Below, piece after piece: positions 3,518-20,421 of a stretch of 20,466 bases of DNA (its first letter is position 1; each line of letters begins with the position of its first letter). A program made the position numbers and the translations under genes. Under the pieces are notes generated by a model, which was given only the letters and a program-made list of their open reading frames with translations, was not told the DNA's origin and did not search any database. The DNA is from a virus. The DNA is taken from positions 1 through 20,466 of IMG/VR virus record IMGVR_UViG_3300045993_000316. One strand, written 5' to 3'.

Positions 3518-3951
3518 TTTGCTACTGTGAGTAGTTTCCAACGAAGTTTTTCATATACATCCATTTGACCAGCACAGTAGTTGGCCAAACCTTGCTCGCC
3601 GGCCGCGGTTGACAATTTGAATAACTTTGCCATATCAGCTAGAAGAGCATCATTGAGCACTAGGATTTCTTTCACCATTTCTTTTGGTTTGGAACCTACG
3701 ACTATATTGGCTTTAACGGTCTTATTGGCTTGAACTATAGCAACCGAAGCATTCACATATTCCTCGGCTTTTGATATAATTCGGACGTATTCGGCCAGAG
3801 TATCTACTTGATCAAAGTATTCGTTATAAATCTCACCAAAGAATGTATGATACTGGTTGAAGTCAATACCTTCGCAGTTCCAATGATAACCCCAGACGGT
3901 CAGAGCCGACTCAATGTGGTTGGCCAGTGCTACTTTAAGTTCGTCAATCAT
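3514..3951 (-). CDS. dps: Dps-like ferritin (DNA-protection protein family)
   Basis: The 145-residue, all-helical sequence carries the Dps signature. His23 lies in a YHWNCEG motif, His35 follows 12 residues later, Asp50 15 residues after that, and Glu54 four residues further. This is the spacing of the Dps ferroxidase ligands (E. coli His51, His63, Asp78, Glu82). The family's additional Asp four residues after the second His is Gly39 here, with Glu40 beside it, so the site may be modified. Dps proteins form 12-subunit shells that oxidise iron, detoxify peroxide and often bind DNA. There is no long basic N-terminal tail, so DNA binding would need another surface. The gene overlaps both neighbours by ATGA and sits among predicted head-cargo genes, which suggests late expression and perhaps packaging. 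No capsid-targeting N-terminus is seen. Confidence 0.87.
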   Translation of the reverse strand: MIDELKVALANHIESALTVWGYHWNCEGIDFNQYHTFFGEIYNEYFDQVDTLAEYVRIISKAEEYVNASVAIVQANKTVKANIVVGSKPKEMVKEILVLNDALLADMAKLFKLSTAAGEQGLANYCAGQMDVYEKLRWKLLTVAK

Positions 3952-6900
3952 TTCTTACCCAATCCTGCCCACATAGAGAAGGCCGTGTCTTGTTTCTTCT
4001 TAACCAGAGCTTGTTGTTGAGATGCAACCTTAGTTGTTCCAACTGGACGGCCGGCTTGTGATACATGCTTTTCGGCAAAGTCTGGGTGATTCTTAAGGTG
4101 ACGAACAAAGTGGATCTTCTCGTTGCGGTCAAAACCAGCAGTTGGACGTTTGCCTGCCTCTACGTTAGAGTGAGCACGAGTCTTGAGAAGGTCACGGTCG
4201 ATGTTGGTTGGTTTACCGCGGCCGCGTTTCACTGGCTCTGGGAGTCCAAGAGCTTTGCGTTGAGCTTTAAGATATTCTTCCTTGGACTCTACTTCTTTGG
4301 CCTTCCAGTATGCATCACCGGATAGTGGGCGAGTTGCTTCATCTAGTACTTCTTCCTTAAGAGATTCTGGGTGATTTGCGTAATGTGCATGAGCAGCACG
4401 AGAGGCTGCCATATCACCAATTCTTTCATATGCATCTAAGTAAGCACGAGCACCTTCGGCTGCGGCAGCCTTAGTCTTGTAGCCATGCTGGCCGAGATAC
4501 ATTGTAGTACCTTTTTTCTTATGTACTACTTTTGGACGGAAGCCGCCAAACTGACTTGGTTCCGAAGTTGCATTGTAGTGATATGTATTGATAGCTTCAT
4601 CAAGAACTTCTTCCTTCAGATCTGCTTTCAAACCGGGAACTTCATTCTTAAGAACACTCATGGCACGTTGGTGAGAACCGTAGGTGTCGACGTGCTTACC
4701 ATTGGCATGGATTGCATGGTCATCACCGGTTTTGATGATTTCATATTTTACACCATTGGAACCTTTGCCAGAGAATGTAACTTCTTCATCAAGTACTTCT
4801 TCCTTCAGATCTTTGAACTGATTCCAATCGGAAGCATCGGTAGATCTAACGGCATGATTCTGAATGGTCGAACCGTCTTGTAGGTGCAGAGCAAAACCAT
4901 TGCCCTTGTTACGTACTTTAGACATCTTATGGTCACCCTTCAGTGTCTTATAGATAACGGTGCCACCTACGGCAATGTCGTCCATAGCAAATCTTGCTGC
5001 TTCATCAAGTTCTACTTCTTCATTTTTAGTTCTACGGTCAACAGAACGGTTGAAAGTTTCGCGGTCCTTGTCTGCATTGTGCAGTCCGTTTGCATTAGAG
5101 AAGCGAGCCGATACAGCCTGGCTTTTCATAAAGCCACCCTTGTTCTTACCACCAGCAATCTTATCAAGTGCCTTCATAACGCCAGCACCTCGGTTGTCTG
5201 CTTTTCTGTCATCTGGTTCATGAGCGCGTGCATCATTGGCCTGTTTGGCATATGAACCTAGAGTAGCTTTGGACAGTTCGTCAATTTCTTCCACTTCTTC
5301 AGCCATGTATTCGTTGTACTTAGCTCTTAGATGTTTTTGAGCCAGAGCGTGAGCATCTTTACCGTGTGTGGCTCGGGTAAAAGTCGCCTTTACCTGGCCG
5401 ACATTACCAAGAACTTCATAATGGTCTGGGCCGAGAGAAGACACGTAAGGCTTTTGTTTGCCTTTCATATGTTCTGGTGCATCAGATTCATCAAGTACTT
5501 CTTCTTGAAGTTTGCCTAGCAAGTTGAGATATTTCTTACCTGCAGCTTCGGAGTCGGGATATGCAACATGAGAGAACTGGTCATTGTTGGCAACAATTTC
5601 GTGCTGACCGGTCTTTTTGTGTTTGCGAAGAATCATCTCACCTTGTCCGGCATTACGCTTCCAGGTACCAATTTTGTCATGGTCGTCGAACTTAATGTCG
5701 GTTGCTGGAGTTTGTTTGCCAGTATTCTTAGCCTTCAGTTTAGCGACATAAGACTTTGGTTGCTTGTCTGGGTTAGGACCAGCCCAAATTTCATCAAGTT
5801 CTTCTACTTCTTCCTTAGTCAATCTGTCAAGTGCAGCATCGGTACCACGAACTCTATTTGTACTTTTGTACAGATTTTCTTCACCCTTTTCGCCGTATGG
5901 AGAGCGCTTGTAGTTGGCAAGTTTCTTTTGGCCATCAGGAATAGCCTTTTTGACATATGCCGCCAGAGTTTTCTTAGAGAGTTCATTCAACATGTACTCT
6001 TCTGAGATGTCTTCAAATAGTTCTACGGCAAGTTGTTGAGCTTCAAGCAGAGAATCAGACATGCTGAGGGCTTCGGTGCGGCAATCTTCCTTGATAGAGG
6101 CAAGACCGTCTACGATAGCATCTTCATACTGTACGAATTCTTCATTTTTCTGATCATATGCTTTCCGATATGCCTTCATGGCATATTTTTCACGCTTGTC
6201 ATACTTATCTACAAGTACATCACCCTTTACCAATTTGCCAACAGCTTTTTTGTGATAAGATTTAAGAGTGTCTTTGCTCAATTCATCAATGCTTTCTACT
6301 TCTTCTGTCAGACCAAGAGCCTTTACACGAGATGAGACAGCATTTTTAAGTGATGTTGAAGTATGAGGATCTGATTTAGCCAAAGCATGGATATGGAGCA
6401 GAGTTTTGTCGTCCATGTTGCGAAGGAACTTCTCTGGAGTCTTGTGAGATAGGAATTCAGCATATCTTTGATTACGTTGGCGACGGGAAGCATTATCTGA
6501 TTCTACCGATTCATCAAGTTCTTCTACTTCCTCTGCCCTGATAGCAGAGAATTCTTTGTGTGCCATCTTAATGAACTTTGGATGCATAGGTTCACCGGCA
6601 GCCTTGGCCAATTCGGATGCACGTTGAAGCACTGGGAAAGCAGAAATCATGGTGCGAGAAGGGATATGCTTTGTTTTGATTGTTTTCCGAACTACAAATG
6701 ACTCAATAAGCATTTCTTCGATGTCTGCATCCACACCTTCGGTCACAGTACCGTGGGTATCTTCTGGAAGATCAATCACACCATAGAATGCACCTAGTTC
6801 GTCCAACTTGGTCAACCCATCGGCAACGGCTTCTGCCATGCTTGAGTGAGCCGTATAACTTTGTGGTACATCCATGAATGTACTAGCACCATAGGTCAGC

Positions 6901-7043
6901 TTGGCAAACACTGGGCTTACGCGCCAAAAGAATACTGAAGAATCTGGCGATTCAACAATGGTAAGACATACTTGCCCAGCAAAAGATACAAGAGCACCAT
7001 TTGGGGTTTTAGTAATGTGGACGTATTTTTCTATTTGCATCAT
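3948..7043 (-). CDS. Giant modular polyprotein-like internal virion protein (1031 aa)
   Basis: The largest gene in the window. A distinct N-terminal domain (about 1-110) with aromatic and hydrophobic strands is followed by modules separated by EEV-x-(L/I)DE linkers; (L/I)DE sites end at 178, 254, 418, 519, 589, 681, 753, 816 and 902, with LNE354 as a variant. ELSKxTLxxY helical elements follow several sites (255-263, 355-363, 590-598). Module 754-816 is a near copy of one in the 762-residue protein. The C-terminal module is basic, with an AT-hook-like VKRGRGKP at 938-945 and a second GRPVGTTK at 998-1005, suggesting DNA contact. The start is ATG ATG; an AAGGA box sits 4 bases before the first and 7 before the second ATG (7040), so either may be used. 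Linkers fit T4 prohead protease specificity; processing is inferred. Alternative: an uncut core or scaffold protein. Confidence 0.82.
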   Translation of the reverse strand: MMQIEKYVHITKTPNGALVSFAGQVCLTIVESPDSSVFFWRVSPVFAKLTYGASTFMDVPQSYTAHSSMAEAVADGLTKLDELGAFYGVIDLPEDTHGTVTEGVDADIEEMLIESFVVRKTIKTKHIPSRTMISAFPVLQRASELAKAAGEPMHPKFIKMAHKEFSAIRAEEVEELDESVESDNASRRQRNQRYAEFLSHKTPEKFLRNMDDKTLLHIHALAKSDPHTSTSLKNAVSSRVKALGLTEEVESIDELSKDTLKSYHKKAVGKLVKGDVLVDKYDKREKYAMKAYRKAYDQKNEEFVQYEDAIVDGLASIKEDCRTEALSMSDSLLEAQQLAVELFEDISEEYMLNELSKKTLAAYVKKAIPDGQKKLANYKRSPYGEKGEENLYKSTNRVRGTDAALDRLTKEEVEELDEIWAGPNPDKQPKSYVAKLKAKNTGKQTPATDIKFDDHDKIGTWKRNAGQGEMILRKHKKTGQHEIVANNDQFSHVAYPDSEAAGKKYLNLLGKLQEEVLDESDAPEHMKGKQKPYVSSLGPDHYEVLGNVGQVKATFTRATHGKDAHALAQKHLRAKYNEYMAEEVEEIDELSKATLGSYAKQANDARAHEPDDRKADNRGAGVMKALDKIAGGKNKGGFMKSQAVSARFSNANGLHNADKDRETFNRSVDRRTKNEEVELDEAARFAMDDIAVGGTVIYKTLKGDHKMSKVRNKGNGFALHLQDGSTIQNHAVRSTDASDWNQFKDLKEEVLDEEVTFSGKGSNGVKYEIIKTGDDHAIHANGKHVDTYGSHQRAMSVLKNEVPGLKADLKEEVLDEAINTYHYNATSEPSQFGGFRPKVVHKKKGTTMYLGQHGYKTKAAAAEGARAYLDAYERIGDMAASRAAHAHYANHPESLKEEVLDEATRPLSGDAYWKAKEVESKEEYLKAQRKALGLPEPVKRGRGKPTNIDRDLLKTRAHSNVEAGKRPTAGFDRNEKIHFVRHLKNHPDFAEKHVSQAGRPVGTTKVASQQQALVKKKQDTAFSMWAGLGKK
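4337..4361 (-). repeat. Linker micro-repeat (one of several DNA-level copies)
   Basis: A roughly 25-base unit encoding LKEEVLDE recurs with few changes at about 4337-4361, 4595-4619, 4784-4808 and, more diverged, 5487-5511 in the same gene, with related versions in the 762-residue gene (for example near 1623-1640). The copies mark module borders and could serve as short homologies for module exchange. Confidence 0.7.
4608..4790 (-). repeat. Direct repeat copy B: shared 60-aa module
   Basis: Second copy of the unit at 1446-1628, encoding about residues 752-812 of the 1031-residue protein, in the same orientation and with no indels. Differences are mostly at third codon positions, so both copies appear to be under protein-level selection after duplication. 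Confidence 0.9.
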
Positions 7044-13062: not shown

Positions 13063-13572
13063 TTACTTTGGTGGTGTTTGAAACTTTAGAGATTCTTGGT
13101 ACACAGAGTTGTATTGATTAACACAGTACTCTAGTTGGTTTCTTACTGTTTCGGCTCTGGCAGCTTCCCCGATAAGAAATTCTGCATCGGCTCGATAAAG
13201 CTCTTTTCCGGTGGCACCTGTACTGATGACAGGGGTGGTATTGCCGGGCACGTCTGTGCCACTTGGACGATTGGGGCGGTTTTGCAACTCACGAGTAATA
13301 GCAGCAACAGTGGCAACAAGACTTTTATTCTTTTCATTTAGTAACCTCACTTGATTTTCAGATTCTTTTTTCAGGGTAAGTTCAGAGAGAGCAGCTTTGG
13401 TCTTTAGATCTGCTATTACGGCAGCTCTATCGGCTTCAACTTTGTCCCAGAGAACTTGTACGGATGCAGCACCTTTGTTATAGATATGATTGTATGTAGT
13501 CCAACCGATACCAAGGATTGCCGCCAAAAGTGCAGCTAAAATGCCTGCACGAACATATAAAGAAGTAAACAT
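13063..13572 (-). CDS. Rz: Inner-membrane spanin, Rz-like
   Basis: The ATG at 13572 lies two bases after the endolysin stop and gives about 169 residues; the alternative upstream TTG at 13590 overlaps the endolysin and adds six residues. One N-terminal membrane segment (about residues 5-24 after this start, GILAALLAAILGIGW) anchors the protein in the inner membrane. The following 80 residues are a charged, heptad-rich coiled coil (KVEADRAAVIADLKTKAA onward). This is the standard architecture of Rz i-spanins, which join the outer-membrane lipoprotein Rz1 and fuse the two membranes at the end of lysis. The call is confirmed by a lipoprotein gene embedded in the +1 frame and by the adjacent endolysin and holin candidates. 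Confidence 0.85.
   Translation of the reverse strand: MFTSLYVRAGILAALLAAILGIGWTTYNHIYNKGAASVQVLWDKVEADRAAVIADLKTKAALSELTLKKESENQVRLLNEKNKSLVATVAAITRELQNRPNRPSGTDVPGNTTPVISTGATGKELYRADAEFLIGEAARAETVRNQLEYCVNQYNSVYQESLKFQTPPK
13143..13337 (-). CDS. Rz1: Outer-membrane spanin lipoprotein, Rz1-like, nested inside Rz
   Basis: This 64-residue frame lies wholly inside Rz, shifted +1, as in phage lambda. It starts MKRIK, has a hydrophobic run of leucines and a lipobox LVSC with the acylated Cys at 18, followed by Lys-Thr rather than Asp, which favours outer-membrane sorting. The mature part of about 47 residues is Pro-rich (CPAIPPLSS, VQVPPEK), as usual for Rz1. It would bind the Rz coiled coil across the periplasm. 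A signal peptide plus lipobox in this exact nested position is hard to explain by chance. Confidence 0.88.
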   Translation of the reverse strand: MKRIKVLLPLLLLLLVSCKTAPIVQVAQTCPAIPPLSSVQVPPEKSFIEPMQNFLSGKLPEPKQ

Positions 13573-13574
13573 AA

Positions 13575-14039
13575 TTATGGTGTCATACAAAGTTGATATT
13601 CACGTGCTCTTCTCAAAGTCAATCCGTTTAGAGATTTACCCTTGAATTTGTCCCATTTTTTAATTTCGGCACACGCGCCCTCATAGTCATATGTATTGAG
13701 CTTCTTAACTAGCGTTGAGTTACAGAATGCATACGAACCGATGTTATAGCTGAGTTCAATGTAAGCGTCATATTCGTTTTGAGACAATGGAGCAGTAACA
13801 CATGTTTTTAATGCTCCCTCAAATTTTTGTACGTCCTGCAAAGTTCTCATTAAAGCTTTTGGTGGAGTTGTAGTATCACCAAGTTTCACACCATCTGTAG
13901 TTCCAAATCCTATTGTAGGTACATCACCTTTGACTGGGATGATGGCCTTATCTGAATAGCTTTCAGAGACAATAAGGGAAACCAGAGCAGAAGCCGATAA
14001 TGCAATACCAGCGACCTGTTTTCTTGATGGTGTGTTCAT
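13575..14039 (-). CDS. SAR-type endolysin (GH24 lysozyme)
   Basis: The 154-residue protein starts with a weakly hydrophobic, Ala/Ser/Gly-rich segment (KQVAGIALSASALVSLIVS, 7-25), typical of a signal-arrest-release domain that tethers the enzyme until the membrane is depolarised. Immediately after comes Glu26, then KGDVPTIGFGTTDG (37-50), the lysozyme active-site loop with Thr42. Conserved GH24 blocks follow: QNEYDAYIELSYNIG (91-105) and the C-terminal KWDKFKGK (128-135). In the common P21 family the catalytic pattern is E-x8-D-x5-T; here the nearest Asp is Asp39, and Pro35 lies where the usual Asp would align. I recall this KGDVPTxGFG variant from phages and prophages of Burkholderiales. It cleaves peptidoglycan glycan strands. 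It overlaps the upstream membrane-protein gene by ATGA. Confidence 0.87.
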   Translation of the reverse strand: MNTPSRKQVAGIALSASALVSLIVSESYSDKAIIPVKGDVPTIGFGTTDGVKLGDTTTPPKALMRTLQDVQKFEGALKTCVTAPLSQNEYDAYIELSYNIGSYAFCNSTLVKKLNTYDYEGACAEIKKWDKFKGKSLNGLTLRRAREYQLCMTP

Positions 14040-14242
14040 TTCATTACCGCATTCTGTGTTACATTAGCCGCCAAATATGCACCAACTGTAGCAATGACAA
14101 CTGCCGAATAGACCCCGTCGGCGATATGTCCGTACCATGTGAGAATGCTGGCAGATATGACAGAAATCAGAGCTAGAATAAATTTACGAGAACTTAGTCT
14201 AACTAGAGTGTCATTTGTGATGGGTTGTATTTCTTCTGTCAT
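14036..14242 (-). CDS. Small two-helix membrane protein, holin or holin-partner candidate
   Basis: Sixty-eight residues with two predicted membrane segments, 21-36 (FILALISVISASILTW) and 43-60 (GVYSAVVIATVGAYLAAN), a polar acidic N-terminus and a short Lys end. Size and topology fit class II holins. It overlaps the endolysin start (ATGA) and is itself overlapped by the 86-residue membrane protein, so all three are translation-coupled. Which of the two is the holin, and whether the other is an antiholin or pinholin (as expected with a SAR endolysin), cannot be settled by reading. Confidence 0.7.
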   Translation of the reverse strand: MTEEIQPITNDTLVRLSSRKFILALISVISASILTWYGHIADGVYSAVVIATVGAYLAANVTQNAVMK

Positions 14243-14499
14243 TGTATGATCTGATTTGGGTTTAGAGGATTTATCGTTGCTGGATTGTACATTATTCTAG
14301 CAATAACTGTGCCTATTGATAAGACTCCTGTGATAGCTGCTAAATAAAGCATACTTCGAGGTTCGATAAAACCCTCTAGATAAGGCAAAGATACCTGGAA
14401 TGATGATACAGCCGTAGATATGATCGAGATCTTTACCGTACGGCTTTTCAGTAGAATGTTTTTCCAGTCTGGATGTAAGATTTTATTTTTTGTTGCCAT
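14239..14499 (-). CDS. Holin candidate (DUF7940-like small membrane protein)
   Basis: Eighty-six residues: a basic, Trp-containing N-terminus (HPDWKNILLKSRTVKISI, 9-26), a first membrane segment about 24-40 ending SLPYL, a loop with Pro, and a second segment 50-71 (LYLAAITGVLSIGTVIARI). The WKNxLxKSxTVKxxI start followed by a segment ending in xLPxL is a pattern I associate with holins of betaproteobacterial phages (DUF7940-like); this is recall, not a search. A good ribosome site (AGGAT, seven bases upstream) precedes the ATG at 14499. It is first in the lysis cassette. Confidence 0.72.
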   Translation of the reverse strand: MATKNKILHPDWKNILLKSRTVKISIISTAVSSFQVSLPYLEGFIEPRSMLYLAAITGVLSIGTVIARIMYNPATINPLNPNQIIQ

Positions 14500-14520: not shown

Positions 14521-15483
14521 TTACCCACAAAAGCCAATAGGGAGCTCCATGTAGGAATCACGGATTTCCTGCTCGGCGGCTTCAATTTCTGCCACGGCCT
14601 GAGCCATGAGAGTACTTGCATCAATAGTTACACCACCAAGCAACTGGATGCCTTGATATTTTTGTGTATTTTGGGCCCATTGATGCTTAACCTTGGCCGT
14701 CACTAGCTTCTTGAGCATACGGTCATTGTAGATTGTGGTGAACACTTCTGGATCAAGAATACGGTAGCATTCAAAGATGATGAAGTCGCCGGGATTTGCC
14801 ATGGCCCAGTCAAGATCCAAGAATACCTTACCCATCTTACGGTTAAAGCGAACCGAATCGATTGGACGTAGCACTTGGTCAATAAGGCTAATATGTTGCA
14901 TCAATTGCTCAAAGTAAATCATAGAAGATGAACCAAGATTTTGGAACGTTGACATAATGACTTGATATTTTGGGTCAAAGATGTAGTTGGCAGAATTTGT
15001 GCCGGCAAACCATGGAATAGCACGGATAATGCCAGTAACCATATCGGAGATAGGAACAGAACCGGTCTCTGTATCACCTGCAATGGAAGACACAAACGTA
15101 CAGACTGAACCTGTAGTCTGGCCAGTGATTACAGCGGATGCTTGGAAGGTAGAATTTGGCACATTTGCTACATTGGAGATAGCACGAGCCGTAAAAGTAG
15201 TTGCGTTTGGAATAGACAGAATCTGGAAATGAGTGCCGTCGGCCGCCTGAGCAATCTCACCCGGAATGAATCCTACAGTAGTACTTACGGTGACCACGGT
15301 AGGCAAGAGCTGATGCTTCAAATACAGGCGTTCTGTGCCATCATAGTGGAAGTCTTGGAAGAACTGAAGTGCTTCGTTAACTCTGTCTTCTAGTTGTACT
15401 GGTGCCACTTCGATTGCGATAACTGGCTTGCCAAGGTTGACGAGTGCGTATTCTATTAAGTCTGCTTTTGAGGATATTGTCAT
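14521..15483 (-). CDS. 13: Neck protein, T4 gp13-like, with internal insertion
   Basis: The 320-residue product has the gp13 N-terminus, SSKADLIEYALVNLGKPV (4-21) and QLEDRVNEALQFFQDFHYDG (30-49), and the conserved second half: ISDMVTGIIRAIPWF (145-159), FDPKYQV (169-175), then SVRFNRKMGKVFLDLDW (210-226) and the C-terminal ELPIGF. With gp14 it forms the neck that seals the DNA-filled head. Between YLKHQ (54-58) and SVPISDMV, an extra segment of about 80 residues (59-142) is Thr/Ser/Val-rich with ITGQTTGSVCTF near 119-130. Simple gp13 proteins, as I recall them, pass from KHQLTQEDI directly to ISDSI here. The insert looks like a small beta domain, perhaps exposed on the collar. ATG overlaps the upstream TAA by one base. 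Confidence 0.88.
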   Translation of the reverse strand: MTISSKADLIEYALVNLGKPVIAIEVAPVQLEDRVNEALQFFQDFHYDGTERLYLKHQLLPTVVTVSTTVGFIPGEIAQAADGTHFQILSIPNATTFTARAISNVANVPNSTFQASAVITGQTTGSVCTFVSSIAGDTETGSVPISDMVTGIIRAIPWFAGTNSANYIFDPKYQVIMSTFQNLGSSSMIYFEQLMQHISLIDQVLRPIDSVRFNRKMGKVFLDLDWAMANPGDFIIFECYRILDPEVFTTIYNDRMLKKLVTAKVKHQWAQNTQKYQGIQLLGGVTIDASTLMAQAVAEIEAAEQEIRDSYMELPIGFCG

Positions 15484-17639
15484 TATGCTGTCCTAGGCCA
15501 GAAATCTTGCATCTGAACTCTTTCAAATGTACTTTCTGAATTTCTAACTGATATGCCAGTTATCATGTTGGAGAATTGTGATGGTCCTTTGGAAGATCCG
15601 CCAGAAGAACTAGAGTTATTTGAATTATTTATTACAATTGGTTGCGCGCTCTTTTGCTCTTTTTGTGCTGTGTTTTGTTCTTTTTGCTCTACATTCTTGC
15701 TTACTTCTGCCGTAACTGGATTCTTAACTGGAGTTACCTGCTTAGCAACTTCTGGTGTAACGGCTGCAGTGATCTTAGATTTGTCAACCTTGATACCTTG
15801 CTTCTCAAAGAATTCGGCAGACTTGGTAGTAAGTTTGCCTTCCTTAACTCGTTTCTCATATAGATCTTGTGCGGACTTTTTATCGGCTTCTTTTTGCTTA
15901 TCTTCATCTGAATTACCGAACCAACCCTTGACCTTATCTACACCATCTGCGATGTTAGATTGCACATTTGTGTTTTCATTAAGCCATTCACCTGCTTTAT
16001 ATCCAGCAAAACCAGCTGTTGCCAGAGCTGCGGCAGGTAGTGCAACACTACTTATGGCACCAGCTGCCGGTGCAGCCATGCCAGCAAATCTACCGCCTAC
16101 AGTAGCTACGGTTGAAAGTGCTTTTGAACCAAGAGAACCAGCGGTTTTTGCTACCGTGGCACCTGCAGTCTTGGCAGCTTCTGCTACCTTGGGTACTGTG
16201 CCCATTACCTTTTGTGTGGCAGATTTCATGCCTTCTTTAATAGCAGGAGCTCTATTTGCTATTGTTTCTTTTGCCTTGGAAGCAAGATTTACTAATCCCT
16301 CTTTGGCCTTACCTGCAGTGCCCATCACCTTTTCGGTGGCCTTAGATAATCCTTCTTTAATAGTTCCGGCAACACCAGAATTTCTTACAGATTCAACTAC
16401 CGCTTTGCCACCTTTTAATGCTAGGCCGCCAAGAGCTTTCGCACCATTGATTGCCATGCCACCTGCTGCAACACCACCTCGAATCAATAGATCTGTTGCT
16501 TTATCTTTAAGAACCCGTACTAACGTTCTTGGGGGTTGTTTTTCGACTTGTTTTTCATTGTCATTCGGTTCGGTAACTGCTTGAGAGGCTTTCTTTGCTA
16601 CTACTTCTTGAGCACTTTCTTCTGATTCTGCTTCATCTTTGGCACGTTCTACTTCATTCTCTTTGAGGATTCTATTAGTTTCTTTTGCTTCTTCTACCAG
16701 TTCACCTGTTGTCTTTTCGACATTTGAATCAATCGTTACTAGATCTTTTAAACTTTTGAGTACAGAACCATAATTATCGGCGTTAGCTGCTTTGATAGAT
16801 ACTACTTCTGGAGTAGATTCAGATCCTTGAATTACTTCTGGAGTAGATTGTGAAGTTGTTTTGGTTGCTGCTAGTTGTTTTCTACCAATCTCAATCACTC
16901 TCATTGATTCTTTGTCACGCTTCTTTTCTGCCTGTTTATAGGCAGCAGTGTATTCGTCTTGAATTTCTGACTGTGGTATTGCTTTAGCTGGAGTTACTTC
17001 TAAAGAGGGTTCTTGTTCCGAAGGTTTTTCTACTTTACTTATTAGATCAGAAAGTCTGTCATTAGTTTCTTGAGTGTTGGTGTCTATACTTTCAAGTTTT
17101 TGTACTATTTCTGTGTTATCCTGTACTGGTGTGGGTGTAGCTTCACTCTGAGCTTTTTGTTTCTTTTCGTAGCTAGGTTTTTGAGCTAGTTGCTTGTTTA
17201 TTACCTTCTTATATTCTTGGAATTCTTTGGAGTAGCGTTTATACAGTTCGTTATTTTCTAAGTCAGACTTAGACTGAATTTTGACGTCTTTGTCTAGTTG
17301 AGTTAGGATGCCAACTATTTTCTTCTGTACTTCTTCTTTAGTGGCATCTTTGCCAATATCTGCTTGTACTTTAGATGCAAATGGATTATCTGATGTGTTT
17401 GCTGCGGAATCTGCGTAAAGTTTTGTGAAAGAAGTTTTAAGTCTTTCATTATGTTTTTTGTCTGCCTTAGCTTTAATAGAACCTGCAAGCGCAGCACCAA
17501 GAACTGGTGATCTATTGGTGAGCTCATCAACAAGAGCACCAGTCATTGCATTCTTGAACTCTCCACCAACTTCTTTGACGAAACTCATTGTTCCACCAAA
17601 GACGTTCTTAGCTTTATTTTTTAGGGATTCTTTGAACAT
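15483..17639 (-). CDS. Large Ala/Gly-rich structural protein, possibly tape-measure-like
   Basis: A 718-residue protein. The N-terminal third is charged and helical (KSLKNKAKNVFGG-type start, KxxxE-rich 55-160). Residues 160-370 are polar, Ser/Thr/Glu-rich and probably disordered, with a duplicated STPEV at 265-269 and 275-279. Residues 385-550 are Ala/Gly-rich with imperfect 40-residue repeats and a hydrophobic stretch (about 505-550) that could cross a membrane. A second low-complexity region with poly-Ser/Gly (672-683) precedes a conserved-looking C-terminus ending VQMQDFWPR. Coiled coil plus hydrophobic segment is typical of tape-measure or ejected tail proteins, but T4's counterpart gp29 lies elsewhere, so the call is tentative. 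It shares a stop/start overlap with gp13. Confidence 0.5.
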   Translation of the reverse strand: MFKESLKNKAKNVFGGTMSFVKEVGGEFKNAMTGALVDELTNRSPVLGAALAGSIKAKADKKHNERLKTSFTKLYADSAANTSDNPFASKVQADIGKDATKEEVQKKIVGILTQLDKDVKIQSKSDLENNELYKRYSKEFQEYKKVINKQLAQKPSYEKKQKAQSEATPTPVQDNTEIVQKLESIDTNTQETNDRLSDLISKVEKPSEQEPSLEVTPAKAIPQSEIQDEYTAAYKQAEKKRDKESMRVIEIGRKQLAATKTTSQSTPEVIQGSESTPEVVSIKAANADNYGSVLKSLKDLVTIDSNVEKTTGELVEEAKETNRILKENEVERAKDEAESEESAQEVVAKKASQAVTEPNDNEKQVEKQPPRTLVRVLKDKATDLLIRGGVAAGGMAINGAKALGGLALKGGKAVVESVRNSGVAGTIKEGLSKATEKVMGTAGKAKEGLVNLASKAKETIANRAPAIKEGMKSATQKVMGTVPKVAEAAKTAGATVAKTAGSLGSKALSTVATVGGRFAGMAAPAAGAISSVALPAAALATAGFAGYKAGEWLNENTNVQSNIADGVDKVKGWFGNSDEDKQKEADKKSAQDLYEKRVKEGKLTTKSAEFFEKQGIKVDKSKITAAVTPEVAKQVTPVKNPVTAEVSKNVEQKEQNTAQKEQKSAQPIVINNSNNSSSSGGSSKGPSQFSNMITGISVRNSESTFERVQMQDFWPRTA
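16179..16361 (-). repeat. Two tandem-spaced internal repeats (21 aa, 40-residue period)
   Basis: Residues 427-447 (IKEGLSKATEKVMGTAGKAKE, bases 16299-16361) and 467-487 (bases 16179-16241, beginning IKEGMKSATQKVMGTVPK) match at about two thirds of positions. They suggest a duplicated amphipathic helical unit in the 718-residue protein. Confidence 0.75.
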
Positions 17640-17666
17640 GTTTCAAGTATTATTTCTTTAATAAAC

Positions 17667-17674
17667 TATTTAAT
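17667..17674 (-). promoter_or_regulatory. Candidate phage late promoter (ATTAAATA)
   Basis: ATTAAATA on the minus strand is in the 37-base gap between the short coiled-coil gene and the 718-residue gene, 27 bases before the ATG. The surrounding gap is very AT-rich and carries no hairpin that I can see. Confidence 0.42.
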
Positions 17675-17676
17675 GT

Positions 17677-17847
17677 TCAACTTAGATGATTCTTATTGTA
17701 TTCGAGAATCAGTTTTCTAGCCATACTATTGACGGTATGTTCTATATCGGCCACTTGTTTATCTAAAGCCGCATATTCCAGCGACTTTAGATCTAATTGT
17801 TCACGAATTCTTCGAAGTTGATCAACGAGGAATTCGTGATCAGTCAC
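17677..17847 (-). CDS. Short coiled-coil protein, GTG start (56 aa)
   Basis: A frame of 56 residues fills the space between the DUF4214 gene and the 718-residue gene. It begins with GTG at 17847, two bases after the upstream TAG, and ends with TGA at 17677. The sequence VTDHEFLVDQLRRIREQLDL continues as a strongly amphipathic helix with Leu/Ile/Val at heptad-like spacing (LEYAALDKQVADIEHTV) and ends NKNHLS. Short helical proteins of this kind occur next to tail or fibre genes as assembly partners; no function can be assigned. The next in-frame ATG comes only at codon 42, so GTG is the only reasonable start. Clean fit of the gap and low-complexity-free sequence argue for a real gene. Confidence 0.7.
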   Translation of the reverse strand: MTDHEFLVDQLRRIREQLDLKSLEYAALDKQVADIEHTVNSMARKLILEYNKNHLS

Positions 17848-17849
17848 AA

Positions 17850-18176
17850 CTATGCAGCTTTGTTTTCTGCCGATTCGGAAAAGTTGATCAAGATGTTTTC
17901 TCGTCTTGGATCTGAAGCAAGCAAACCGACCCAGTAAGCTAGGCCACCTGCATCTGGTTCACGGTTTAGAACATTACGATAAAGCAATGTTACAAACTGA
18001 GCATCAGTAGTAGCGCCATAGGTATCAATCCATTCTTGAGATGCCATGAATGCCTGAGCAATCACAGGCAAACCAACTGTGAGAAGCATAGATTCCCAAT
18101 ATGCTTGGCCATTGGCATCAGGTAAGCGTTTGAATGCAGCACGATAAAGACGCCAGATAGGTCCCTTGTCTTGCAC
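17850..18176 (-). CDS. Small DUF4214-domain protein
   Basis: The 108-residue protein consists of one DUF4214 unit with two related halves: LYRAAFKRLPDANGQAYW at 10-27 and LYRNVLNREPDAGGLAYW at 65-82, ending in the family's FSESAENKAA. The PDxxGxxYW motif resembles a Ca-binding-like loop. DUF4214 is common in large secreted and S-layer-associated bacterial proteins, usually C-terminal; here it is a free-standing phage gene beside fibre genes. The start codon is GTG (18176); no ATG is available in frame. It lies eight bases after the preceding gene. A role in fibre or host-surface interaction is inferred. Base composition is higher in GC than the neighbouring 718-residue gene. Confidence 0.82.
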   Translation of the reverse strand: MQDKGPIWRLYRAAFKRLPDANGQAYWESMLLTVGLPVIAQAFMASQEWIDTYGATTDAQFVTLLYRNVLNREPDAGGLAYWVGLLASDPRRENILINFSESAENKAA

Positions 18177-18184
18177 GGCATTAA

Positions 18185-18499
18185 CTACGCTAGTATTTCT
18201 GCTGCTCTGCCAGTAGCTAATAGACCGGCAGTCTCAAGCAGGTTGATACCGCCTACTGTGTCAGGGTCTGCCATGTCAATGAATTCAGCCAACAGGAATT
18301 GCTGCCAGTACCAATCGAGAGTGGCGTTGGCATTTGCCGCAGTCTTGATAGCGGCGTATTCAGTGGGTGTGAAGCGCTTGAGAAATTCGCGCTTGCTGAT
18401 TGAAGGTTTTACCTGTGAAGGTATGAACTTCAATTCACGGGTGACAGCACCCGTGGCATGTTCTGTGACAACATAATCACCGTCAATGTATTGGTTCAT
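18185..18499 (-). CDS. Conserved small phage protein next to tail-fibre genes
   Basis: One hundred and four residues: an N-terminal beta part (MNQYIDGDYVVTEHATGAV) followed by helices KREFLKRFTPTEYAAIKTAA (36-55), NATLDWYWQQFLLAEFIDM (58-76) and DPDTVGGINLLETAGLLATG. From memory, the block RFTxxEYAAIKxAA...YWxxFxxAEFID...L(E/D)xAGLL occurs in small proteins encoded beside tail-fibre genes of many phages and prophages of proteobacteria, without known function. It could be a fibre-associated or assembly factor. Its ATG lies one base after the preceding gene's stop. No catalytic residues stand out. Confidence 0.72.
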   Translation of the reverse strand: MNQYIDGDYVVTEHATGAVTRELKFIPSQVKPSISKREFLKRFTPTEYAAIKTAANANATLDWYWQQFLLAEFIDMADPDTVGGINLLETAGLLATGRAAEILA

Positions 18500-18500
18500 T

Positions 18501-18953
18501 TCAGTTAGTCCTGTAGATGTAGGCGAAACCTGTCTTTGCCGTTTCAGAAAGGCTTGATGCGTATTCCACTAAAAACGATGTGTTGTATGGAATTTGGTCG
18601 TACACAGTGAAGTTGCTTGTTTGCGTATTACCTATCGGCATCACACCATCTCCAGTTGTAGTGCAAGCGCCTGAGGTTGCATCAAAAACAACCGTGCCAT
18701 CAATCGTGACCCTGACTCGGTGAGTTCGGCTAGTTGCGTCGTTGCTGTAGGCTGCAAAGTAGTTAACAACGCCAGATCCAGTAAGTGACAAAGCAGTTAC
18801 CAGCGTGTTTGCCGTCACCGCGCCAGTTGTTGATTTCTTGGTAAAGCCATTGCTAAGAAACGGGGCAAATATTGTCCCGCCACCTGTGCTGAAAGAGTTG
18901 ATGATTGCCCTTGGCACTCTTGCACCACCCGCGAATTGTGAAAGCGAACTCAT
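18501..18953 (-). CDS. Beta-rich fibre/appendage protein
   Basis: The 150-residue product is Thr/Ser/Gly/Ala-rich. It begins MSSLSQFAGG, a start used by many short phage fibre or collar proteins, and then forms alternating strands with motifs such as RVRVTIDGTVVFDATSG and YNTSFLVEYASS that look like a jelly-roll or beta-sandwich domain. It overlaps its upstream neighbour by ATGA. No adhesin family is recognised. The location between two other fibre-like genes argues for a tail-fibre or virion surface role. Confidence 0.62.
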   Translation of the reverse strand: MSSLSQFAGGARVPRAIINSFSTGGGTIFAPFLSNGFTKKSTTGAVTANTLVTALSLTGSGVVNYFAAYSNDATSRTHRVRVTIDGTVVFDATSGACTTTGDGVMPIGNTQTSNFTVYDQIPYNTSFLVEYASSLSETAKTGFAYIYRTN

Positions 18954-19417
18954 ACGAGCCTCCAGTTTCCATTTACAAAGCGCAACTCAACCGTTGCATT
19001 GGCGTTATCCACGGTCACATCCTCAGCCAATCCCATGATGGTCTGACCATTCCTTGCGATGACGTTGGTAGTTAAACCGTTTGTCGGTGTCACCCATACC
19101 GTGTCGCCACTTGCGGGGCTTGCAGGTAGCGTGACTGTGGTTGTAGCAACATTGGTCAAGATGTAGTGACTGCCTGCTACTGCGGTTTGGGTGGTTCCGG
19201 TCACAGTAACAACACCAAGCTGACCTATTGCAGCAGTGGCAGGAAATGCAACAGCGCCAGTAGCGTCAATGGTCAGAACATCCTGAGTTGTAACTCCCAT
19301 ATTACCCCGAGATAATTTGATAGTTCCATCTGGAGTGACTGGTATGCTTAGAACAAAGTTCTGTGTGGCAGTAGATGATTGTCCAATTTGGACGTTATTA
19401 ACTTTTAATGTTGACAT
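18950..19417 (-). CDS. Tail-fibre-type protein
   Basis: The 155-residue protein begins MSTLKVNNVQIGQSST, the N-terminal pattern of phage fibres that attach through a short strand-rich anchor. The middle TTTVTLPASPASGDTVWV and the ending ATVELRFVNGNWRLV follow a scheme known in fibre modules (YxLTNxAxxTVTLP...GDxVxV...N...IxG), a small beta domain that often ends in W-x-L-V. The gene starts three bases after the preceding stop and overlaps the next gene. Local GC is the highest in the window (37 of 60 bases in 19081-19140 by hand count). Confidence 0.68.
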   Translation of the reverse strand: MSTLKVNNVQIGQSSTATQNFVLSIPVTPDGTIKLSRGNMGVTTQDVLTIDATGAVAFPATAAIGQLGVVTVTGTTQTAVAGSHYILTNVATTTVTLPASPASGDTVWVTPTNGLTTNVIARNGQTIMGLAEDVTVDNANATVELRFVNGNWRLV

Positions 19418-19420
19418 ATT

Positions 19421-19720
19421 TTAAAAACCACCAAAGTTTATGGCAGCATAGATAGTTGATCCAGCAGAAGATGGAGTTACCGCGGACCAGTTAGTAACAT
19501 CTAAACTTGGGTCTGTGGTACCGGCCCCAGCAGTAATTCTTTTATAGGTATTGAAATCTACTGGGCTGTAGCGAAGATCTCCTATTACATAGGTTCTTCC
19601 GGAGATCCATACAGAAATAATGCCAGCAATACCAGTTGCCGTGAATGGCACTGCGTCTACGCCATTCACTTGGATAGCACCCGAGATTCCGTCTGGATTT
19701 GATTTTAAGTTAATAGCCAT
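19421..19720 (-). CDS. Tail-fibre protein with carbohydrate-binding-like Tyr/Gly-Asp module
   Basis: Ninety-nine residues. The C-terminal half reads W38, SGRTYVIGDLRYSPVDF, then TYKRITAGAGTTDPS and NW: the W-x-x-x-x-x-Y-x-x-G-D-x-x-Y pattern of small chitin-binding-like (CBM5/12-type) beta modules that phages use in tail fibres. The GAGTTDPSxDxxNW ending is common in fibre proteins of proteobacterial phages. The N-terminus (MAINLKSNPDGISGAIQVNG) is a likely anchor strand. An exact late promoter octamer lies 23 bases upstream, so this gene probably opens a transcription unit that continues left. No Shine-Dalgarno sequence is evident before the ATG. Confidence 0.72.
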   Translation of the reverse strand: MAINLKSNPDGISGAIQVNGVDAVPFTATGIAGIISVWISGRTYVIGDLRYSPVDFNTYKRITAGAGTTDPSLDVTNWSAVTPSSAGSTIYAAINFGGF

Positions 19721-19743
19721 AGTTTATATTTATGAATTATATC

Positions 19744-19751
19744 TATTTATA
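19744..19751 (-). promoter_or_regulatory. T4-type late promoter (TATAAATA)
   Basis: The minus strand carries TATAAATA, the exact T4 late promoter -10 element recognised with gp55-type sigma factors. It overlaps the stop codon of the upstream gene and lies 23 bases before the next ATG. A second partial match, CATAAATA, occurs at 19727-19734, but it is too close to the start codon to serve it. Confidence 0.65.
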
Positions 19752-20421
19752 CAAGTGCTGGCAGAACAGGCTCGACAAGATATGGGGTTAGTTCTTCCTC
19801 TGTTGTGGCAGATTTAATTATAGTTTTAGTATCTTGAAGTTTGGTAAATTCTGCAAAATTTCTAGCGAGAATAGCATTTGACAGACCAGTCAATTCTACT
19901 TTTGTCATTGGATGAAATACATTGCTTTTATCTAACCAACTAAAGTCAGCAGGAAATTCAGAAGTAGATAGTGTCTGAGACATAAGATTCTGAGAATAGA
20001 TAGTAGCATCAAATTCAGTTCCCATATAGGTAACTGGTTCTTGTATGGCAATATAGTATTTTTGAGTAGAAAATCTTAGAGCCTTTTGCTTTTGTTCATC
20101 AAGAGACAGAGTACGTTCCGCGGCAATTTCTATACCAACTTTATCTGCTACAAGAGAATGATCGAATAGAGTCGTTGGATTTTCCAGAATTTCCATGGAT
20201 GTAACAGGTGCATGAGATATAATATAGTCGTGCATTTTTTCTGGAGTATCTATATTTGAGAAAAATGTTAGATTAATATCCGATCGGCATCTTTCTGGTG
20301 ACACAGCTGTATCCCCAACCACAGAAGCCAGAGCATTTTCGGACAGAGTATCTGAGTAATATCTAATCAAAGCAGAGTTTGTAGTTGCGTCAAATGATAG
20401 TATTTTATAAAATATTTTCAT
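19747..20421 (-). CDS. Tail-fibre associated protein, possible assembly chaperone
   Basis: A 224-residue, largely acidic protein. The N-terminus (MKIFYKILSFDATTNSALIRYYS) is a strand-turn-strand unit; residues 100-140 contain LDEQKQKALRFSTQKYYIAI, and the C-terminus has SWLDKSNVFHPMTKVEL, then a helix NAILARNFAEFTKLQ and a short tail TEEELTPY. A C-terminal block with a Trp, a short strand and a helix is what I know from DUF4376-like and tail-fibre assembly proteins, but the match is loose. Its position beside fibre genes supports a fibre assembly or fibre-base function. The ATG is separated by 13 bases from the preceding gene's probable stop. Confidence 0.5.
   Translation of the reverse strand: MKIFYKILSFDATTNSALIRYYSDTLSENALASVVGDTAVSPERCRSDINLTFFSNIDTPEKMHDYIISHAPVTSMEILENPTTLFDHSLVADKVGIEIAAERTLSLDEQKQKALRFSTQKYYIAIQEPVTYMGTEFDATIYSQNLMSQTLSTSEFPADFSWLDKSNVFHPMTKVELTGLSNAILARNFAEFTKLQDTKTIIKSATTEEELTPYLVEPVLPALV

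What the first reader, a model, noticed from the sequence alone, without database searches (positions are those of the whole stretch)
17850..19417. GC-richer fibre block with a stand-alone DUF4214 gene
Hand counts give 29/60 (18241-18300), 28/60 (18961-19020) and 37/60 (19081-19140) G+C against 22/60 in 16681-16740. The block includes small genes of a type I associate with betaproteobacterial phages and prophages, plus a DUF4214 protein. This fits recent import of host-range genes into a more AT-rich T4-like backbone.
Basis: partly seen in the sequence, partly recalled or inferred. Interest (0 to 1): 0.5.

Follow-up and report, generated by a model that had tools for sequence, protein, structure and literature searches.

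The report
Swapped tail-fibre cassette with stray domain
A virus of bacteria carries a stretch of host-recognition genes that looks borrowed from unrelated phages, with one extra protein domain cut loose from a longer protein; borrowing of this kind is known, but the loose domain may hint at an uncharacterised surface-binding role.

Summary
All four hand counts are exact; 17850-19417 has 47.6% G+C against 42.1% (SD 1.5). After correcting for amino-acid content GC3 is 0.431 against 0.344 expected, z 4.4. The excess is not uniform: codons 1-56 of the 155-aa gene and the DUF4214 gene are native; the anomaly spans about 18185-19220.

The block is a mosaic. Similarity to T4-like relative L112 stops near 19257 and resumes at the DUF4214 stop. 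Between lie a fibre "cap", a small adhesin and a putative chaperone, in the order found in integrase-bearing, unrelated L101 (86% and 80% DNA identity pieces). The DUF4214 gene has another source: its nearest viral match ends a papain-like protein in L082, and similarity starts at the chaperone's stop codon. It was not found in 7 T4-like records searched.

Import is supported. A betaproteobacterial source was not confirmed, and "recent" holds only for the cap domain, relatively. Cassette swapping is known. DUF4214's role is inferred from a profile match to phycobilisome linkers and a weak fold resemblance to the LPS-binding RsaA domain.

The parts
19257..19417 (-). Native N-terminal anchor of the 155-aa fibre protein (codons 1 to about 54)
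   Evidence: 80% DNA identity to L112 7894-8056, stopping at 19257; codons 1-56 GC3 0.286
19195..19257 (-). Left junction zone: L112 similarity ends, L101 DNA similarity begins
   Evidence: BLAST pieces converted to window coordinates; alignment
18950..19225 (-). Imported distal 'cap' domain of the 155-aa protein, ending WRLV
   Evidence: 57-87% identity to nine other copies; 86% DNA identity to L101 over 275 bases; codons 57-155 GC3 0.495
18501..18953 (-). 150-aa small adhesin-like protein starting MSSLSQF; overlaps the cap gene's end
   Evidence: 43-50% identity to four relatives; 15 loci found with that alignment, four of them records already held; low-confidence model, strands, mean pLDDT 60
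18185..18499 (-). 104-aa putative fibre-assembly chaperone; C-terminal 71 residues conserved, N-terminal third variable
   Evidence: phrog_25252 (unknown function) E 3.7e-12; alignment with three cassette copies
18177..18191 (-). Fusion seam: chaperone stop codon and the five codons before the DUF4214 GTG, similar to the L082 linker (VVNA)
   Evidence: 11 of 15 bases identical to L082 before GTG, then 3 of 42
17850..18176 (-). Stand-alone DUF4214 gene, 108 aa, two repeats, putative GTG start
   Evidence: PF13946 E 1.5e-30; 76% identity to the C-terminus of a 479-aa Peptidase_C1 protein in L082; model pLDDT 93.8, eight helices
17677..17851 (-). Right junction: backbone resumes at the DUF4214 stop; small 56-aa gene g17677
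   Evidence: 85% DNA identity to L112 8287-8537, from window 17851 down to 17601
15483..17639 (-). 718-aa backbone gene flanking the variable site
   Evidence: 74% (L112) and 59% (L107) identity; no PHROGs match at E 0.001
19421..19720 (-). 99-aa fibre-type protein whose N-terminal anchor is shared with L003 and L112
   Evidence: 74% over 31 aa in L003, 56% over 54 aa in L112; GC3 0.333
19747..20421 (-). 224-aa DUF4376 tail-fibre chaperone-like protein
   Evidence: PF14301 E 1.2e-9, phrog_1807 tail fiber protein E 1.6e-5

Best explanation
The site between the 718-aa gene and the upstream fibre genes is a swap site for receptor-binding cassettes in this lineage of T4-like phages. A cassette is a cap domain (grafted onto a resident N-terminal anchor), a small adhesin starting MSxLSQF, a chaperone with a conserved C-terminus, and a variable cargo gene after the chaperone. 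In the window the cassette entered inside the anchor-cap gene and brought its own codon usage. In the cargo slot, a DUF4214 domain like the C-terminus of a papain-like phage protein was joined right after the chaperone stop codon and became its own small gene, probably translated by coupling from the chaperone. Shown: the composition break, the junctions against L112, the shared gene order with L101, the variable contents in relatives, and the similarity of DUF4214 to L082. Inferred: that the adhesin binds a receptor, that the 104-aa protein is its chaperone, that swapping changes host range, that the transfer ran into the T4-like phage, and that DUF4214 is an accessory surface-binding or anchoring module.
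For: Composition and codon break with amino-acid control. L112 similarity stops at about 19257 and resumes at the DUF4214 stop. L101 carries cap-adhesin-chaperone in the same order, with 86% and 80% DNA identity pieces, a Phage_integrase gene and structural proteins of other PHROGs families. Cap-domain dS 0.55 to L101 against dS 1.35 (gp13) and 1.03 (gp15) between window and L112. In 3 of 4 T4-like relatives examined the fibre genes as a set also have excess GC3 (L107 z 12.7, L003 z 8.0, L112 z 5.5). The joint WRLV-stop/ATG...CA(A/G)TT is kept in 9 of 9 rows aligned, from 8 records out of 16 with a cap match by then. L112 holds two such cassettes in tandem. DUF4214-L082 similarity begins at the chaperone stop; none of 19 other viral DUF4214 loci examined has it in an open frame under 337 aa.
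Against: In L002, one of the four relatives examined, fibre-gene GC3 is below backbone (z -4.2), and single fibre genes of L112 and L003 are at or below backbone too (L112 237-aa type gene -2.9, second cap -2.3; L003 chaperone -0.6), so GC excess is not a rule of the site. Resident genes of the window deviate up to |z| 4.4. The cap-domain tree is unresolved and does not exclude one origin of the T4-like rows. Seven of the 15 adhesin-family loci match only from residue 4-15 onward, so the MSxLSQF start is not kept throughout the family. The DUF4214 gene has native GC3. Direction of transfer is not shown. No host is known.
Confidence: 0.8

Rival explanations
1. Ordinary composition effect: fibre proteins are rich in Ala, Gly and Thr, so their genes are GC-rich without any import.
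For: Expected G+C from amino-acid content and backbone codon use is already 45.3% for the block, so more than half of the excess over 42% is amino-acid content; DUF4214's 45.4% is fully explained so. L002's fibre genes show no GC3 excess, and resident window genes reach |z| 4.4.
Against: GC3 excess remains after the correction (z 4.4) and codon chi2 exceeds all 210 overlapping backbone windows; break points in similarity coincide with the composition change inside the 155-aa gene.
Confidence: 0.1
2. The block is ancestral and L112 and the other relatives lost or replaced it; the T4-like lineage is the source and L101 the recipient.
For: L112 carries the same kinds of cassette twice next to the same site; direction of transfer is not determined; the tree is unresolved.
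Against: The codon usage of cap, adhesin and chaperone differs from the backbone of window and L107 and, for most of these genes, L112; the DUF4214 gene was found in 0 of 7 T4-like records searched as held.
Confidence: 0.15
3. The DUF4214 open frame is a relic of recombination without function.
For: No Shine-Dalgarno-like sequence is evident before its GTG by eye; found once in this position.
Against: Both repeats and the natural C-terminus are intact, no stops; 76% aa identity to L082 with only 40% identity at third codon positions implies constraint over most of the path, though part of that path may be inside the longer protein.
Confidence: 0.25
4. The 104-aa chaperone and DUF4214 are made as one protein by a -1 frameshift.
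For: The DUF4214 frame is open 19 codons upstream of its GTG, overlapping the chaperone's end.
Against: No X XXY YYZ heptamer anywhere in the chaperone gene; the upstream residues beyond VVNA match nothing in L082.
Confidence: 0.04

Closest known systems
Host recognition module shared by Alteromonas phages A5, V22 and P24 (PMC10579305; abstract, outline and one results section read)
   Same: Fibre and chaperone genes shared between morphologically unrelated phages; variable parts next to conserved parts; DUF4376 chaperones there, a DUF4376 protein beside the block here
   Different: No DUF4214 in the section read; hosts known there, unknown here; sequence similarity of the adhesins was not compared
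Domain shuffling in phage receptor-binding proteins (PMC10684548; abstract and outline seen)
   Same: Fragment sharing between otherwise unrelated proteins, pronounced in receptor-binding proteins
   Different: Here the fragment is a separate gene
T4 gp37-gp38 type fibre tip and adhesin arrangement (recalled, no call)
   Same: Small separate adhesin gene after the fibre gene, with a conserved N-terminal piece
   Different: No similarity to gp37/gp38 tested; the 150-aa protein has no Pfam or PHROGs match up to E 1
DUF4214 / phycobilisome linker domain
   Same: Profile match to ApcE linkers, whole-sequence E 7.7e-18 and 4.4e-15; fold match Z up to 6.6, rmsd 4.9, 103 aligned; PF13946 rings in Synechococcus elongatus among 14 control genomes
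   Different: Single-domain scores are weak (best i-E 0.0077), the window protein alone gives only E 0.5, Foldseek none at E <= 0.001; no phycobilisome context here
RsaA N-terminal domain, LPS O-antigen anchor of the Caulobacter S-layer (PMC6978808; passages read)
   Same: Predicted fold aligns over 106-108 of 108 residues, Z 5.6-5.7, rmsd 3.8-3.9
   Different: No sequence match up to E 10 and not in Foldseek's 50 rows shown; Z this low can be a common helical arrangement; sugar-binding residues not compared

Membership tests
T4-like myovirus backbone | T4-type neck, tail and terminase small subunit genes in synteny | tested here: met
   PHROGs head closure Hc2, tail sheath stabilizer and terminase small subunit; order kept in L002, L003, L107, L112
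Horizontally exchanged receptor-binding cassette | Same gene order in an unrelated phage | tested here: met
   L101 cap-adhesin-chaperone
Horizontally exchanged receptor-binding cassette | Different contents at the same site in close relatives | tested here: met
   L112, L107, L003, L002
Horizontally exchanged receptor-binding cassette | Gene-tree conflict with the backbone, statistically supported | tested here: inconclusive
   Cap-domain tree of 12 rows unresolved; no backbone tree was built
Horizontally exchanged receptor-binding cassette | Determines host binding | not testable with these tools
   No host, no experiment
DUF4214 (PF13946) | Score above the curated cut-off | tested here: met
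   105.5 bits against 23.2
Phage tail-fibre assembly chaperone | Match to a named chaperone family | tested here: inconclusive
   g18185 matches phrog_25252, unknown function, and weakly (E 0.12) a tail fiber family; position after the adhesin is the argument
Betaproteobacterial prophage genes | Close relatives in betaproteobacterial genomes | tested here: inconclusive
   Two genome-contig scans, with chaperone and cap alignments, confirmed no relative in any named genome; the pattern method is not exhaustive and the adhesin and DUF4214 were not scanned there
RsaA-type LPS anchor | Sugar- and calcium-binding residues | not tested
   Only the fold was compared

The most novel reading that the evidence does not exclude
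DUF4214 is a mobile envelope-anchoring domain. Bacteria use it in surface proteins, cyanobacteria use its relative as the phycobilisome linker, and this phage cut it from a protease-type protein to use it alone as an accessory binder of host surface polysaccharide (LPS O-antigen or S-layer sugar) beside its adhesin.
Probability: 0.15. Interest if true: 0.6.

Novelty: new member of a known kind. Interest (0 to 1): 0.4.

Why it matters
It shows at near-base resolution how an uncultured T4-like phage lineage rebuilds its host-recognition tip: resident anchor kept, cap-adhesin-chaperone swapped, and a free slot after the chaperone filled with unrelated cargo. The conserved pieces at the joints (WRLV end, MSxLSQF start, chaperone C-terminus) are search handles for locating adhesins in unannotated phage genomes. 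The detached DUF4214 gives a small, well-predicted protein on which the unknown function of a widespread domain could be tested directly.

Tried and rejected
Single-sequence scan of viral contigs with the 150-aa protein: 23 pattern matches, none confirmed; the five-row alignment then confirmed 15 loci, four of them records already held. DNA-level search of 17600-19760 in annotated phages: no match. tblastn of the 150-aa protein in phages: none. tblastn of the 155-aa protein: 12 records, 38-46% of the query covered, no betaproteobacterial host named; of the 104-aa protein: 30 records, Rheinheimera and Acidithiobacillus phages. Named bacterial genomes: two scans, 125 and 95 pattern matches, none confirmed. 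Scan with the 718-aa alignment confirmed only the two records already held, L112 and L107. Last viral scan with window and L082 DUF4214 found only L082's record again. Structural neighbours of the 150-aa model are many mainly beta proteins at Z up to 9.4, from a low-confidence model (mean pLDDT 60), and were not used to name a function; Foldseek's two matches at E <= 0.001 are lambda-type central tail fibres with TM about 0.3. Rejected: frameshift fusion (no slippery heptamer); pure amino-acid-composition explanation. PDB sequence searches did not list RsaA, so that link is fold-only. A paper search for any four of six DUF4214, PBS linker, RsaA, S-layer and LPS terms found none in the library; this does not prove the link unpublished. 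Of the 4 papers holding DUF4214, passages of two were read. Passages of PMC4360716, PMC3037559 and PMC12175726 were seen and not used as evidence; (second L082 papain-like protein in phages: 3 records, about 26-30% identity) was not used either.

Dropped before counts: repeated copies of one contig were treated as one record (L101=L111=L124, L112=L122=L125, L107=L123, L082=L121=L138). In the GC3 comparison only four T4-like relatives were examined; L004-L006, L011 and L054 among others were not. In the handle alignment 8 of 16 records with a cap match by then were used, the window included; L099, L100, L105, L106, L108, L110, L114 and L120 were left out. The stand-alone count looked only at plus-strand matches; the loci oriented the other way are L001 (the window) and L121 (L082 again). 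Several of its 19 loci match over 21-50 residues only.

Full report
WHAT THE WINDOW IS. The window is a 20,466-base virus record with T4-like genes on the minus strand: terminase small subunit, tail sheath stabilizer and head closure Hc2. Relatives by these genes are metagenome contigs: L002 (84% in the head-closure protein gp14), L112 (82%; gp13 92%, gp15 90%), L003 (79%) and L107 (75%). The best-ranked cultured phage in the collection reaches 43% in gp15, so the host is unknown.

OBSERVATION. The hand counts are exact. The block 17850-19417 is 47.6% G+C against 42.05% (SD 1.5) in same-size tiles of the rest, and the five richest windows printed overlap it. Amino-acid content explains part: from backbone codon use the four genes would have 45.3%. 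The rest is synonymous: GC3 0.431 against 0.344 (z 4.4); codon chi2 125 against at most 80 in 210 overlapping backbone windows. Resident genes also deviate singly (gp13 +3.8, terS +3.1, the 718-aa gene -4.4, the DUF4376 gene -4.2), so the test rests on the block as a whole and on where the change falls.

THE ANOMALY HAS INNER STRUCTURE. In the 155-aa gene, codons 1-56 have GC3 0.286 and codons 57-155 have 0.495. The chaperone-like and adhesin-like genes have 0.490 and 0.473. The DUF4214 gene has 0.333, native. So the composition core is about 18185-19220.

JUNCTIONS. L112 aligns with the window's anchor at 80% DNA identity up to 19257, and again at 85% from the DUF4214 stop onward. Between these points L112 has about 230 bases that complete a short fibre protein. 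The window instead has about 1.4 kb. From 19195 the window matches L101 at 86% over 275 bases, then, after a divergent adhesin and chaperone start, at 80% over 215 bases. L101 has the same three genes in the same order. It is a 35.7-kb contig with a Phage_integrase gene and two proteins in head-and-packaging PHROGs families. The best-ranked relatives of one of these are about 35% identical; of 25 rows listed, 24 are Pseudomonas phages and one a Microcystis phage, and of all 278 records 106 are Pseudomonas and 94 Escherichia phages. That L101 is podovirus-like is my inference from those names. Synonymous divergence of the cap domain to L101 is 0.55. Between window and L112 it is 1.35 (gp13), 1.03 (gp15), 1.03 (g17677) and 0.73 (anchor). 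For the chaperone to L101 it is 1.7. The cap was thus probably shared with an unrelated phage more recently than the two T4-like backbones split; the other parts do not show this.

THE SITE IN RELATIVES. L107 has cap, an adhesin with a weak Collar match (E 0.0006, below the curated cut-off), a chaperone and a 133-aa gene there; L112 has two cassettes in tandem, one with a glycine-rich adhesin; L003 has a 442-aa protein and a 126-aa one; L002 has a 905-aa and a 206-aa protein. Fibre-gene GC3 taken together is above backbone in L107 (z 12.7), L003 (8.0) and L112 (5.5), and below it in L002 (-4.2): 3 of 4 examined. Within L112 and L003 some fibre genes are at or below backbone. The joint between cap and adhesin, TGGAG...stop/ATG...CA(A/G)TT, is kept in 9 of 9 aligned rows from 8 of 16 records with a cap match. 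The adhesin start MSxxSQF is in 5 of 5 aligned proteins, but 7 of the 15 adhesin-family loci found later match only from residue 4-15 on. The chaperone keeps its last 71 residues and varies before them. The slot after the chaperone holds a 237-aa gene in L101 and a 68%-identical one in L112, a 133-aa gene in L107, and DUF4214 in the window.

THE DUF4214 GENE. It has two repeats. The nearest viral relative found is the end of a 479-aa Peptidase_C1 protein in L082 (76% aa). Similarity continues upstream of the putative GTG for four residues (VVNA; 11 of 15 bases) and stops at the chaperone stop codon (then 3 of 42 bases). Of 19 viral loci, none has the matched stretch in an open frame under 337 aa; several match only in part. 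In the library of predicted viral structures the clear matches lie in proteins of 229 aa or more. It was not found in 7 T4-like records (L112, L002, L003, L005, L107, L011, L054) among the 10 searched; the one hit was L082's own record. L005 and L054 gave identical matches and may be one virus; some records are fragments. Of 95 plasmid records with relatives (best about 51% identity), at least 76 are in genera that I know or saw to be alphaproteobacterial (class partly recalled); the six fetched all lie inside longer genes. The model is confident (pLDDT 93.8, eight helices). As an alignment the family matches phycobilisome linkers (whole-sequence E 7.7e-18 and 4.4e-15), but these sums come from repeats: the best single domain has i-E 0.0077, and the window protein alone gives E 0.5. 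By fold the top matches are phycobilisome linkers (Z up to 6.6; Foldseek none at E <= 0.001). The RsaA LPS-anchor domain also aligns (Z 5.6-5.7, rmsd 3.8-3.9, 106-108 residues), at a Z where chance helical arrangements occur. One paper calls DUF4214 a likely surface-anchoring domain in segmented filamentous bacteria (PMC12780176, one passage); another cites DUF4214 surface proteins thought to build an S-layer-anchored enzyme (PMC11970703, passages). RsaA's N-terminal domain binds O-antigen in a calcium-stabilised pocket (PMC6978808, passages).

MECHANISM. Most likely, recombination between phages meeting in one host replaces the outer fibre parts while the resident anchor stays, so the particle can carry a new adhesin. 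Cap, adhesin and chaperone move together. The DUF4214 domain came separately, joined at the chaperone stop, and is probably read by coupled translation. That the swap changes host range, and that DUF4214 binds a surface, are inferences.

AGAINST. The cap tree is unresolved. Direction is unknown. No named host was found. The adhesin model is poor. L002 is an exception to the GC pattern.

COMPARISON. Fibre modules shared across unrelated phages are established (PMC10579305, abstract and one section), as is domain shuffling in such proteins (PMC10684548, abstract). The cassette here is a new member of that kind; the detached DUF4214 is the unusual part.

Noticed in passing
L112:5497-6213 and L101:9136-9849: A 237-238-aa protein with an apparent N-terminal signal sequence, 68% identical between a T4-like and an integrase-bearing phage, next after the fibre chaperone. 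No Pfam match for either; the L101 copy has no PHROGs or phage-record match. By eye it could be an outer-membrane barrel.
   Followed up: partly
13063-13590 with 13143-13337: A gene resembling an Rz-type spanin with a second frame embedded in it (Rz1-like, by eye), beside an endolysin-like gene and two small genes (13575-14499); the embedded frame is kept in L002 and L003.
   Followed up: no
825-3113 and 3948-7043: Two long proteins built of repeats marked by EEVExLDE-like motifs; a piece of the second also matches inside the first one's homologue in L002.
   Followed up: no
L112:3713-7885: Two complete cap-adhesin-chaperone cassettes in tandem with different adhesins in one T4-like record.
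   Followed up: partly
L082:7892-10327: Two neighbouring papain-like (Peptidase_C1) phage proteins, one ending in the DUF4214 domain; a DUF4214-like stretch also begins a gene annotated 'protease' in EBPR siphovirus 2.
   Followed up: partly
17850-18176: DUF4214, phycobilisome linkers (by profile and fold) and the RsaA LPS-anchor domain (by fold only) may form one superfamily.
   Followed up: partly
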